Shown here piece by piece: positions 11,179 to 57,343 of a stretch of DNA of 64,000 nt; the stretch's first letter is position 1, and each line of letters begins with the position of its first letter. The notes beneath the pieces are model-generated. The model was given only the letters and a program-made list of their open reading frames with translations. It had not been told where the DNA came from and made no database searches. This stretch comes from Halorubrum sp. 2020YC2 (lineage in GTDB: Archaea; Halobacteriota; Halobacteria; Halobacteriales; Haloferacaceae), in assembly GCF_018623055.1 (NCBI RefSeq), contig NZ_CP076019.1:2356001-2420000 (forward strand), given 5' to 3'. Position numbers and translations under genes: made by a program.

Positions 11179-11600
11179 TTCATAAGTGAACGATACCACC
11201 GTGAGCGGTTCCGAAGTCTTAGCTACCTGTTTATAAATCGACGCTCCCGGACCGACGGTGAGAACCTCCAAAGCCCCAGCCGCGAGGCGGGCGCACGCTC
11301 GCTGCGCTCCTCGGTCGCTCACTTCGTTCGCTCCCTGCGGTGCTTGCGTCGTCATCAGAACGCTCCGCGTTCTGATTGGCTCACGAGAGCTCCGCTCTCG
11401 TGAACGCCTGTGCCCGCCTCGCGGCTGCCCCTTTGAGTCCCACCCCGCACAGCACCGCAACCGCGCCTCACGCCTCCCCAGCCTCGTCGGCCTCCCTCCG
11501 CTTCGCTCCGGTCGGCCGACTCCCTCGCGCGTGCGACTCGCGCCCTCCGGCCGCTCGCAGGCACGCGCCACCGCTCGTTTATTTATAAATAATCGGCGCT
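11179..11600. repeat. Dispersed structured non-coding repeat, copy A
   Basis: This fills the gap downstream of pccA; no credible gene is present. A degenerate unit near 11179 and a good one at 11230 (tttataaat) lead into the body. Stem 1 pairs 11277-11295 with 11409-11427 (19 bp, one G-T), stem 2 pairs 11486-11492 with 11514-11520, and stem 3 pairs 11527-11534 with 11561-11568. The loop of stem 1 holds two extra perfect hairpins with tcc loops (ATCAGAACGC/GCGTTCTGAT and TCACGAGAGC/GCTCTCGTGA). The end is AT-rich (tttatttataaata). Copies B (about 23963) and C (about 51044) share order, invariant boxes and pairing. Reading frames across it are arginine/serine-rich shadows. Confidence 0.8.
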
Positions 11601-23860: not shown

Positions 23861-23962
23861 ACCTCTCACACGACGAGGTCGGGAACTATGAACGTTATCA
23901 TGATTGATCGTGATTATGTGATACGGGGATCCCGAGAACGCCCGTTCCGCCTCGACCGCTCA

Positions 23963-24430
23963 GTTATAACTGGCTGAGTGCGGATCGCCGGTAAGCGCCT
24001 CCGAAATCCCGGCTGCTCGCTTATAAATAGACGCTCGACGCGAACGCCGCCGAAGCCCCAGCCGCTCGGCCGTACGATGGTAGCTCTTATAAATAGACGC
24101 TCGACACGAACACCGCCGAAGCCCCAGCCGGGAGGCGGGCGCACGCTCGCCGCGCTCCTCGGTCGCTCACTTCGTTCGCTCCCTGCGGTGCTCGCGTCGC
24201 CTGCGCCCGCCTCCCGGCTGCCCCTTCGAGTCCCGCCCCGCACCGCACAGCACCTCACGCCTCCCCAGCCTCGTCGGCCGGTCTCCGCTTCGCTCCGACC
24301 GGCCGACTCCAGCGAGGGACCGAAGGTCCCTCTGGCAGCCGGCGCGTAGCGCCGGCGACCTCGCGCGGTGCCGTTCGCGGCCGCCGGAGGCGGTCGCTCA
24401 CGGGCACGCGCCACCGCACAGAAACTATTT
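23963..24430. repeat. Dispersed structured non-coding repeat, copy B
   Basis: Fills the 580-base gap between the acyl-CoA ligase start and the metX end; no credible gene is present. Three TATA-bearing units start at 23963 (degenerate), 24020 and 24086, the last two each followed by cgccgaagccccagccg. Stem 1 pairs 24125-24143 with 24202-24220 (19 bp, perfect). Stem 2 pairs 24273-24283 with 24297-24307 (11 bp, perfect). A double-hairpin cassette at 24312-24359 follows, then a stem 3 with one bulge whose right arm lies in ggcacgcgcc near 24402-24413. It ends AT-rich (ctatttaaaag, about 24425). The unit-to-body order runs along the plus strand, as in copies A and C. Confidence 0.82.
24312..24359 (+). 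repeat. 48-bp double-hairpin cassette, forward in copy B
   Basis: Two perfect hairpins sit side by side: GAGGGACC-gaa-GGTCCCTC and GCCGGCGC-gta-GCGCCGGC. The reverse complement of 51534-51581 in copy C matches this stretch at 46 of 48 positions, so the cassette is inverted between the two copies. Copy A lacks it. Confidence 0.8.
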
Positions 24431-50141: not shown

Positions 50142-51011
50142 ATGGATTGGAAGACAGACTGGGGGTTGCGTGGACGGATGGCGTTCACGATGTTCCTCCT
50201 GTTCGCCCTCTACGTCGTGTTCGTCGGAGCCCTGACGGTGTACTTCGGCGACTTTCTGTTCCCGCTGGTCATGCTCGGCGGGTTCTCGGTCGCCCAGTAC
50301 TTCTTCAGCGACAAGCTGGCGCTGCGGAGCATGGGCGCCCGCGAGGTCGACCCCGACGAGTACCCGGACCTCCACCGCCGCGTCGAGCGGCTGAGCCAGC
50401 AGGCCGACCTGCCGAAGCCGACCGTCGCGGTCGCGAACACGCAGGTGCCGAACGCGTTCGCCACCGGCCGGAACAAGAAGAACGCCACCGTCGCGGTGAC
50501 AACGGGACTTCTGGAGAGCCTCGACGAGGACGAGCTCGACGGCGTGCTCGCCCACGAGCTCGCCCACGTCAAGAACCGCGACGTGATGGTGATGACCATC
50601 GCCTCGTTCCTCTCGACTATCGCCTTCTTCATCGTGCGGTGGGGGTGGCTGCTGGGCGGCGATAACCGGCAGGGAGCGCCCGTCATCGTCGCGATTCTGG
50701 TGTCGCTCGTGGTGTGGGTGGTCTCGTTCCTCCTGATCCGCGCGCTCTCGCGCTACCGCGAGTACTCCGCGGACCGCGGCGCGGCGCTTATCACGGGCAA
50801 GCCCGGCGCGCTCGCCTCGGCGCTGATGACCATCGACGGCCGGATGGACAAGGTCCCCAAGGAGGACCTCCGCGAGGAGGCGGAGATGAACGCGTTCTTC
50901 ATCATCCCGATCAAGGCCGGCTTCGTCGGGAAGGTCGCTTCGACGCACCCGTCGACGGAGCGTCGGATCGAGAAGCTCCGCGATCTGGAAAAGGAGATGG
51001 AAACGGCCTGA
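50142..51011 (+). CDS. htpX: HtpX-family membrane zinc metalloprotease
   Basis: A 289-aa membrane protease of the M48B family for damaged membrane proteins. Two N-terminal helices (about 16-55) precede the zinc site HELAH with H138, E139 and H142, and a later EYSADRGAA supplies the third ligand. More helices follow at about 148-190. The ATG at 50142 gives the charged start MDWKTDWGLRG typical of the family. It has its own promoter region between it and the divergent epimerase gene. Confidence 0.92.
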   Translation: MDWKTDWGLRGRMAFTMFLLFALYVVFVGALTVYFGDFLFPLVMLGGFSVAQYFFSDKLALRSMGAREVDPDEYPDLHRRVERLSQQADLPKPTVAVANTQVPNAFATGRNKKNATVAVTTGLLESLDEDELDGVLAHELAHVKNRDVMVMTIASFLSTIAFFIVRWGWLLGGDNRQGAPVIVAILVSLVVWVVSFLLIRALSRYREYSADRGAALITGKPGALASALMTIDGRMDKVPKEDLREEAEMNAFFIIPIKAGFVGKVASTHPSTERRIEKLRDLEKEMETA

Positions 51012-51043: not shown

Positions 51044-51271
51044 TTTATAAGTCGTTGAGTGCGGCTTGACGACGAACACCGTCGAATCCTCAGTCGCTCA
51101 TTTATAAATCATCAAGAGCAGATCGGTGACGCACACCGCCGAAGCCCCAGCCGCCTACTTATAAATCGTTGACCGTGGCTTGACGACGCACACTTCCAAA
51201 GCCCCAGCTGCTTGTTTATAAACTGTTGAGGCCGGACCGGTGACGCACACCGCCGAAGCCCCAGTCGCGAG
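51044..51271 (+). repeat. 57-bp tandem repeat (four units) at the front of copy C
   Basis: Units at 51044, 51101, 51158 and 51215 each begin (t/c)ttataa(g/a)(t/c) and continue with a variable middle. Units 2-4 then have a conserved block like ccgccgaagccccag; unit 1 has a decayed version (ccgtcgaatcctcag). The period is exactly 57. The opening looks like a haloarchaeal TATA box, so each unit could be a promoter or a protein-binding site. Confidence 0.8.
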
Positions 51272-51533
51272 GCCGGCGCACGCTTGTTGCGCTCCTCGTC
51301 GCTCGCGTTGCTCGCTCCTGCGGTGCTTACGTCGCCTGCGCCGCCCTCGCGACTGCCCCTTCGAGTCCCGCCCCTCCGGAAGACGTTCCTGCTCGCTTCG
51401 CTGCGCGGGCTGCGACTTCCGTGCTCCCGCTCGCCACGCTCTCGGGAACGCACACCGACCGCACCTCACGCCTCCCCAACCTCGTCGACGGTCCTCCGCT
51501 TCGCTCCGGACCGTCGACTCCCTCGCGCGTGCT

Positions 51534-51581
51534 GTCGCCGGCGCTTCGCGCCGGCTTCCAGAGGGACCTTCGGTCCCTCGC
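51534..51581 (-). repeat. 48-bp double-hairpin cassette, inverted in copy C
   Basis: The reverse complement matches 24312-24359 with two differences in 48 bases. It lies inside stem 3 of copy C but before stem 3 in copy B, so it may be a mobile or invertible piece. Confidence 0.8.
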
Positions 51582-51669
51582 GGCTCGGCCGCGGGGCGGC
51601 CTCTCAGGCACGCGCCACCGGCTCGTTCCTTTATAAGTAATCGCGGGAGAGTCGCGCCGCTGGTCGTTG

Positions 51670-52065
51670 CGAGCGGACTGAGGGGAGTAAGCCCCCTTCG
51701 GTTCGTCCCGACATTCGGCTGAGCGTCCGCGCCGCGGCCGGACTACCTTGTGGCGCGGACTTGCACCGGCGAGGATTCGCCGTTCCATCCGTTCCCGCCC
51801 GTCGATCCTCATCGGGTTAACTCCCTTCCCTTGTGGGTCGGTTCGCACGAATCACGGGTCGGGGCGGGGGGTGTCGTTGCTGTTCCAGAGCCAGCCGTCT
51901 CCGACTCCGGGCGTGTGCCCGGTCGCCTGTCCGGCCGGTGGGGGGACTTTCCTCATGCCAGAGGCACGGGAGTCGGGCTCCCTCTGTCCGGTCGAAGCTT
52001 TGCCGGCCGGCGAATTAAGCGGTTCGGTCGGGCGGCTCGTTCGGCAGACGCCGCGAACCCCGCGA
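51670..52065 (-). ncRNA. rnpB: RNase P RNA
   Basis: In minus-strand sense the universal box GAGGAAAGTCC is at 51954-51944. It pairs (AAG-T-CCCCC, with the T bulged) with GGGGGCTT at 51696-51689; this is helix P4 with its conserved bulged U, the hallmark of RNase P RNA. Near the ends, CCCGAC (52032-52027) pairs with GTCGGG (51712-51707), consistent with P2. In between are GAACAGCAACGACAC and GGTGCAAGTCC blocks, which look like conserved archaeal regions. RNase P trims tRNA 5' ends. The exact 5' and 3' ends are uncertain by about 20 bases; no TATA box is obvious. Confidence 0.9.
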
Positions 52066-56678: not shown

Positions 56679-57239
56679 ATGGACATCTCTCGGCGGGGCG
56701 TGCTCGGCGGTCTCGGCGCGGCCTGCGCGGTCGGCGCCGTCGGCTTCGCGGGCGCGGCGCAGGTGACGGACGGCGAGGCGCTCGAAGGCGTCGGCGGCGA
56801 CGGTCCCGGACCGGCGGGGGACGCCGCCGCCGACGAGGACGACTCCCGCCCGTCGTCGGCCGCCGTCGACCCCGACGCGCCGTTCGTCGCCCGCGTGACC
56901 GGCGACGACGGAACCGAGTCGCGCCTGTTCGACGCGAGCGACCTCGACCGCGTCAAGGGCGTCTTCTCGCAGGACGGCGAGTACCTCGTTCAGGTCGTGC
57001 TCACCGACGCGGGCGTCGAGTCCTTCCGCGAGCGCCTCGACGAGGCCGGCGCGACCGACGACCCGACCGCGTTCGTCGTGTCGATGTCGCTCGACGGGAC
57101 TGAGGTCCGGCGCGTCGAACTCGACCGGGAGACGGTCGACTCGCTCACCGGTTCCGACTGGGAGGGCGTGTTGACGCTCCCCTTCGGTGAGGAGTCGGTC
57201 GCCCGGTCCGTGTACGACCGACTGGCCGACGACGACTGA
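56679..57239 (+). CDS. Tat-exported protein with a SecD-like domain
   Basis: A 186-aa protein. The N-terminus MDISRRGVLGGLG, followed by a hydrophobic stretch, looks like a Tat signal. After an acidic linker (about 35-62), residues 66-184 form an alpha/beta domain (VQVVLTDAGVESFRERLDE) that resembles the periplasmic first domain of SecD proteins. I do not know its function. Its stop codon lies inside the first unit of a 26-bp tandem repeat. Confidence 0.72.
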   Translation: MDISRRGVLGGLGAACAVGAVGFAGAAQVTDGEALEGVGGDGPGPAGDAAADEDDSRPSSAAVDPDAPFVARVTGDDGTESRLFDASDLDRVKGVFSQDGEYLVQVVLTDAGVESFRERLDEAGATDDPTAFVVSMSLDGTEVRRVELDRETVDSLTGSDWEGVLTLPFGEESVARSVYDRLADDD

Positions 57240-57343
57240 AGCGTCGCCCCCACACGGACGACTGAAGCGTCGCCCCCGCACAGACGACTGAAGCGTCGCC
57301 CCCACACGGACGACTGAAGCGTCGCCCCCACACGGACGACTGA
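57231..57343. repeat. 26-bp tandem repeat (four full units and a part)
   Basis: Units start at 57231, 57257, 57283 and 57309, with a nine-base fragment at 57335. The unit is gacgactgaagcgtcgcccc followed by six variable bases. Units 1, 3 and 4 are identical; unit 2 differs at four bases, two of them in its last two positions. The first unit includes the last codons and stop of the Tat-protein gene, so the array may have grown from the gene's 3' end. Confidence 0.95.

What the first reader, a model, noticed from the sequence alone, without database searches (positions are those of the whole stretch)
51044..51271. 57-bp units, each starting with a TATA-like box, in front of the structured element
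Copy C has four units with an exact 57-base period (51044, 51101, 51158, 51215). Copies A and B have fewer, partly decayed units: two of B's are 57 apart, the next is 66. Each clear unit carries ttataaa/t and about 25-40 bases later gccgaagccccagccg or a close variant, and the last unit's ccccag runs into stem 1. The arrangement could be repeated promoters, a binding array for a protein, or a copy-number-variable head of a mobile element. The number of units differs between copies.
Basis: partly seen in the sequence, partly recalled or inferred. Interest (0 to 1): 0.7.

Follow-up and report, generated by a model that had tools for sequence, protein, structure and literature searches.

The report
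Hairpin-edge repeats in a Halorubrum element

Summary
The four 57-bp units are real, exactly where stated, and far beyond chance. They are the left edge of a dispersed, intergenic, palindrome-rich element: 151 copies in this Halorubrum genome, 9 to 194 in each of 52 genomes of the genus, almost none in most sister genera. Each element is n unit(s), then stem 1, an invariant 20-nt block (CTCACRCCTCCCCAGCCTCG), hairpin 3, hairpin 4 and often an AT box. Unit number varies between elements (1-6 in this genome) and between species at 17 of 28 shared sites. In 29 of 30 arrays the near-identical (young) units lie against stem 1 and decayed ones lie distally, so arrays appear to grow beside the hairpin. 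The constant half of the unit is the 5' base of stem 1. The TATA-like box is absent from about 30% of stem-adjacent units here and most in some species, so 'repeated promoters' cannot be the defining role. Elements are site-stable but can disperse: one 98%-identical pair lies at unrelated sites. No Rfam match, none in phages or viral contigs, no published description found. Best reading: a new archaeal variant of composite intergenic repeats (BOX/BIME-like). Biological role unknown; A.C mismatches outnumber G.T, pointing to the minus strand as the structured one.

The parts
51044..51100 (+). unit 1 (most distal, most decayed), 57 bp, TTTATAA box
51101..51157 (+). unit 2, 57 bp, TTTATAA box
51158..51214 (+). 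unit 3, 57 bp, CTTATAA box
51215..51271 (+). unit 4 (stem-adjacent), TTTATAA box; its 3' third is the 5' base of stem 1
51253..51369 (.). stem 1: CAAAG/CTTTG-type helix, CCC/CCC internal loop (invariant in 106/106 own copies), long covarying helix, apical domain
51376..51449 (.). optional hairpin module (GGAAGACGTTCC...), also seen in replicons of other haloarchaea
51465..51484 (+). invariant block CTCACGCCTCCCCAACCTCG (family consensus CTCACRCCTCCCCAGCCTCG)
51484..51518 (.). hairpin 3, covarying stem
51526..51615 (.). hairpin 4 region, here carrying two inserted hairpin modules
51607..51620 (+). conserved 3' end GGCACGCGCCACCG
51630..51636 (.). 3' AT box TTTATAA; such boxes cluster in the first 20 nt after the element's end
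11209..11595 (+). copy A of the element
23949..24416 (+). copy B of the element (unit boxes 57 and 66 apart)

Best explanation
The units are the growing edge of a composite, palindrome-rich, intergenic dispersed repeat of Halorubrum. SHOWN: the unit contains the 5' base of stem 1; the arrays vary in number, and their youngest units lie against the hairpin. INFERRED: replication pauses at stem 1 and slips by one unit, adding a copy next to the stem while older copies decay outwards; template switching between the arms keeps them complementary and occasionally inverts the apical domain; ectopic recombination replaces part of the content of resident copies, and rare copying moves an element to a new intergenic site. 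The TATA-like box is an optional passenger of the unit's variable half. The invariant 20-nt block is probably a recognition sequence for a protein or strand-specific process not identified here.
For: Family size and range: 151 copies, all 52 genus genomes, reversed-pattern control 0 in nearly all genomes. 0 of 115 sampled copies lies inside a called gene; convergent gene pairs 44/115 versus 39/279 in element-free pairs, p=3e-7. Growth polarity: stem-proximal unit pair more alike than distal pair in 29/30 arrays, p=6e-8. Unit counts differ at 17/28 orthologous sites. Stem 1 covariation: 98.7% of cells paired, 14 of 24 pairs with changes on both sides, 0/500 shuffles reach the score. Apical domain inverted in 5 of 45 G151 copies; arm homogenisation and spacer inversion are published effects of template switching between inverted repeats (PMC8604942). 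Site retention in the same orientation at 30 of 34 sites. Recent copying: 98% identity over 547 bp at two unrelated sites, no target duplication visible. Intermolecular gene conversion is efficient in the haloarchaeon Haloferax volcanii (PMC8223754, PMC11276520).
Against: No exact termini, target duplication or mobilising enzyme was found. At site b the flanks of the copied segment may belong to the donor site, so the copied unit may be larger than the element. Slippage and template switching are inferred from pattern, not observed. Ordinary intergenic DNA diverges about as much as element regions between the two species (0.846 versus 0.839), so content replacement is only partly supported: about 7 of 28 sites change stem class (read off).
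Confidence: 0.68

Rival explanations
1. The element is a multicopy structured RNA gene read from the minus strand: a TATA box at the right-hand end drives a G-rich RNA (hairpin 4, hairpin 3, invariant block, stem 1) that ends in the unit array.
For: Helices covary around nearly invariant unpaired blocks. A.C exceeds G.T on the plus strand, i.e. G.U is tolerated on the minus strand: 59:21 in stem 1, 28:6 in hairpin 3, unique stems. AT boxes cluster just outside the right end: 59 of 98 in the first 20 nt versus 9, 14, 2, 2, 0 in the next bins.
Against: 37 of 101 copies lack the right-hand box. The predicted start would fall inside hairpin 4. The apical domain is inverted in some copies. A hairpin scan of the right-hand region as a whole showed no wobble bias. 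No Rfam match. A strand-biased mutation process could give the same asymmetry.
Confidence: 0.25
2. Each unit is a promoter; the array is a stack of promoters firing rightwards into stem 1.
For: The box lies about 36 bp before the conserved block, so a start about 26 nt downstream would fall at GAACACC just before stem 1. In the Halorubrum virus HF2, 56-58-bp intergenic repeats are proven promoters with the TATA at -26 (PMC8707807).
Against: Box missing in 32/105 stem-adjacent units here, 29/45 in G151, 8/9 in G108; box-less 54- and 51-bp units amplify too. The HF2 repeats share size and an AT box only; their reported motifs were not seen in these units, and blastn against phages gave no match.
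Confidence: 0.12
3. The unit array is a binding array for a protein (nucleoid, replication or regulatory).
For: Regular spacing, a conserved half-unit, enrichment between convergent genes.
Against: Most elements have only one or two units, counts drift freely between close species, and the conserved half is explained by its role in stem 1.
Confidence: 0.1
4. The element is a degenerate IS200/IS605 derivative (PATE) moved by a Y1 transposase.
For: Near-terminal palindromes, no visible target duplication, strand asymmetry; PATEs are common in another haloarchaeon (PMC3119063); Y1 transposase genes exist in 41 of 51 genomes.
Against: Genomes with no Y1_Tnp match carry many copies: G105 130, G119 125, G133 110, G123 108. 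No full-length parent element was found.
Confidence: 0.12

Closest known systems
BOX elements of Streptococcus pneumoniae (boxA-boxB(n)-boxC)
   Same: About 125 intergenic copies, composite, variable number of an internal tandem module, predicted stem-loops, over-represented between convergent genes, length varies between genomes (PMC3049150)
   Different: No sequence relation known; here the tandem module is at one edge and includes the base of the hairpin, growth is polar, and several covarying hairpins surround an invariant block; archaeal host
BrickBuilt MITE of Porphyromonas gingivalis
   Same: Intergenic element carrying a minisatellite; segments with promoter capability (PMC4596501)
   Different: 23-bp units, inverted-repeat ends, 19 copies; no inverted-repeat ends found here
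PATEs of Haloquadratum walsbyi
   Same: Haloarchaeal, transposase-free, near-terminal palindromes, no target duplication (PMC3119063)
   Different: No tandem unit array mentioned in the passages read; tied to IS605 ends; here abundance does not follow Y1 transposase presence
HF2 class I intergenic repeats (Halorubrum virus)
   Same: 56-58 bp with a TATA box (PMC8707807)
   Different: Dispersed single promoters in a virus, no hairpin described; no blastn match of our element in phages

Membership tests
Composite intergenic repeats of the BOX/BIME kind | many intergenic copies built of sub-modules in regular order | tested here: met
   151 copies; 0 of 115 sampled copies inside genes; constant module order
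Composite intergenic repeats of the BOX/BIME kind | variable number of a tandem sub-module | tested here: met
   1-6 units in own genome; differs at 17/28 orthologous sites
BOX (the named family) | homology to boxA/B/C | not tested
   pneumococcal BOX sequences were not compared
MITE | terminal inverted repeats and target-site duplication | tested here: not met
   no TIR or TSD at the ends of the 98%-identical pair; true termini uncertain
PATE / IS200-IS605 derivative | ends matching an IS605-type transposon | not tested
   no IS605 ends were extracted for comparison
PATE / IS200-IS605 derivative | a Y1 transposase in host genomes | tested here: inconclusive
   absent from 10 of 51 genomes, including several with over 100 copies
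Known structured RNA family (Rfam 15) | covariance-model match | tested here: not met
   no match above gathering score; best weak matches E=0.014 and 0.16
Archaeal promoter array | TATA box in every unit | tested here: not met
   73/105 own, 16/45 G151, 1/9 G108 stem-adjacent units
Archaeal promoter array | transcription start at the unit | not testable with these tools
   no expression data available

The most novel reading that the evidence does not exclude
The elements form a genus-wide family of up to about 190 structured minus-strand RNAs (or folded single-stranded DNAs) per genome whose own folded strand drives their dispersal and the addition of units at its 3' edge: a SINE-like, non-coding, structure-guided mobile family in archaea.
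Probability: 0.06. Interest if true: 0.9.

Novelty: new variant of a known kind. Interest (0 to 1): 0.55.

Why it matters
It describes a major, apparently unreported repeat family of a widely studied archaeal genus (151 copies in a 3.06-Mb genome) and offers a clean natural record of tandem-repeat growth beside a hairpin, with palindrome arms that stay complementary while sequences change. The 20-nt block, 94-100% conserved at 19 of 20 positions across species and found unchanged in another genus, asks for a specific recognising factor. Unit counts could also serve as typing markers.

Tried and rejected
Coding on either strand: rejected; in every frame 30-71% of unit bodies contain a stop, although unit lengths are mostly multiples of 3 (unexplained). 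Strict location between convergent genes: rejected, only enriched. First wobble count on loosely found hairpins of the right-hand region gave no bias; counting the properly anchored hairpin 3 did. The argument that rare G.U pairs exclude RNA was dropped: RNase P RNA of the same genome also has only about 3% G.U. Complete turnover of element content between species was toned down after the control on ordinary intergenic DNA. Exact empty sites: E1302786 is absent in G151 but the junction is not clean. Plasmids: only short module matches in 10 records, one of them Halorubrum; the number of Halorubrum plasmids searched was not established, so absence from plasmids is not claimed.

Full report
OBSERVATION. 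The four units at 51044, 51101, 51158 and 51215 exist exactly as described. Lag-57 identity is 0.684, against at most 0.422 for any lag 40-79 in 2000 dinucleotide shuffles. The array lies between htpX (peptidase M48, 50142-51011, +) and the archaeal RNase P RNA (51676-51988, -). The next gene after it encodes an AMMECR1 protein.

FAMILY. A 501-bp query from this place finds dozens of relatives in the same genome. The unpaired block CTCACGCCTCCCCAGCCTCG (at most 2 mismatches) occurs 151 times in this 3.06-Mb genome, and 9 to 194 times in each of the 52 genomes of the genus. In the rest of the family it is nearly absent, except for one genome of another genus (G062, 98 copies), a variant form in G021 (14) and G169 (9). 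The reversed control pattern gives 0 in nearly all genomes. Neighbouring named species at the htpX locus are all Halorubrum or relatives. G151, used below, is probably H. trapanicum DSM 12287, because its contig 3 has the same length, 354315, as that strain's contig.

ANATOMY. From 108 fetched stretches plus the window: one to six units; stem 1, made of a CAAAG/CTTTG helix, a CCC/CCC internal loop that is invariant in 106/106 own copies, and a long variable helix; a linker ending CTTTGAGTCCC; sometimes an extra hairpin module; the invariant block; hairpin 3; ACTCCCTCGCG; hairpin 4; GGCACGCGCCACCGCA; and often an AT box. When elements are found through another block, the invariant block is 94-100% conserved at 19 of 20 positions in 193 copies. 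Stem 1 in 47 equal-length copies: 98.7% of cells form standard pairs, 14 of 24 pairs change on both sides, and 0/500 shuffles reach the covariation score.

UNITS. Spacing is 57 bp in 79 of 103 steps of this genome; other unit families measure 48, 51, 54, 60, 63 or 66 bp. The stem-adjacent half (GAACACCTCCAAAGCCCCAGCCGC) is conserved and contains the 5' base of stem 1; the half with the TATA-like box is variable and in many units lacks the box. Identical units lie next to stem 1 and diverged ones farther away: the proximal pair is more alike than the distal pair in 29 of 30 arrays, p=6e-8. At 28 orthologous sites comparable between this genome and G151, unit counts differ at 17, e.g. 5 versus 1 at three sites.

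SITES AND MOVEMENT. None of 115 sampled copies lies inside a called gene; 44 lie between convergent genes, 57 between tandem, 14 between divergent ones. Against element-free neighbours convergent sites are enriched (p=3e-7) and divergent ones slightly depleted (p=0.046). In 400 kb of G151, chosen for carrying elements and therefore biased towards presence, 30 of 34 comparable sites hold an element in the same orientation. One pair in this genome is 98% identical over 547 bp with unrelated flanks: a recent copying event. At one of these two sites, relatives lack the element or carry it inverted. Stem arms at orthologous sites differ at 5.1 of 20 positions against 6.5 for random copies, and about 7 of 28 sites change stem class; since ordinary intergenic DNA also diverges by about 15%, replacement of content is only partly supported. 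Five of 45 G151 copies have the apical domain of stem 1 inverted. Together with near-perfect arms this matches published effects of template switching between inverted repeats (PMC8604942).

STRAND. In unique stems, A.C pairs exceed G.T pairs: 59:21 in stem 1 (29:8 outside the unit part) and 28:6 in hairpin 3. On the minus strand these are G.U/G.T wobbles, so the minus strand looks like the structured one. An AT box follows the right-hand end within 20 nt in 59 of 98 copies, far more than in later bins. This keeps a minus-strand RNA, or folded minus-strand DNA, open. It does not prove it: 37 of 101 copies lack the box and strand-biased mutation is possible.

MECHANISM. The best-supported account is hairpin-side replication slippage for unit number, template switching for the palindromes, ectopic recombination for part of the content, and rare copying to new intergenic sites. 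The pattern is shown; the molecular steps are inferred. Efficient intermolecular gene conversion is documented in Haloferax volcanii (PMC8223754, PMC11276520).

COMPARISON. In kind it resembles pneumococcal BOX elements (PMC3049150) and the BrickBuilt MITE (PMC4596501). The defining features of a MITE (terminal inverted repeats, target duplication) were not found. IS605-derived PATEs (PMC3119063) remain possible, but copy number does not follow Y1 transposase presence. There is no Rfam match, no match in phages or viral contigs, and no description in the searched literature, which holds only open-licence papers.

Noticed in passing
window 57231-57343: Tandem repeat of 26 bp x 4.3 (GACGACTGAAGCGTCGCCCCCACACG, 95% matches), lying mostly between two called genes.
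   Followed up: no
window 51361-51451 and 51512-51586: Two optional hairpin modules of copy C match, at 78-89% identity, stretches without listed genes in replicons of other haloarchaeal genera: they seem to be separate small palindromic families nested in the element.
   Followed up: partly
all unit arrays: Unit spacings other than 57 are multiples of 3 in 25 of 30 array-steps although no reading frame is kept open; unit families share ancestry, so the steps are not all independent.
   Followed up: partly
L287, L291, L297, L298, L304: Apical domain of stem 1 inverted in five G151 copies and none of about 140 copies elsewhere.
   Followed up: partly
L012 and L023 (htpX downstream region): Elements lacking stem 1, as if it had been deleted between short direct repeats at its base.
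   Followed up: no
L237-L261, region after the gene ending at genome position 1396574: A gene-end spacer that holds quite different inserts in each close species (HTH gene, other ORFs, the element in either orientation): an insertion hot spot.
   Followed up: partly
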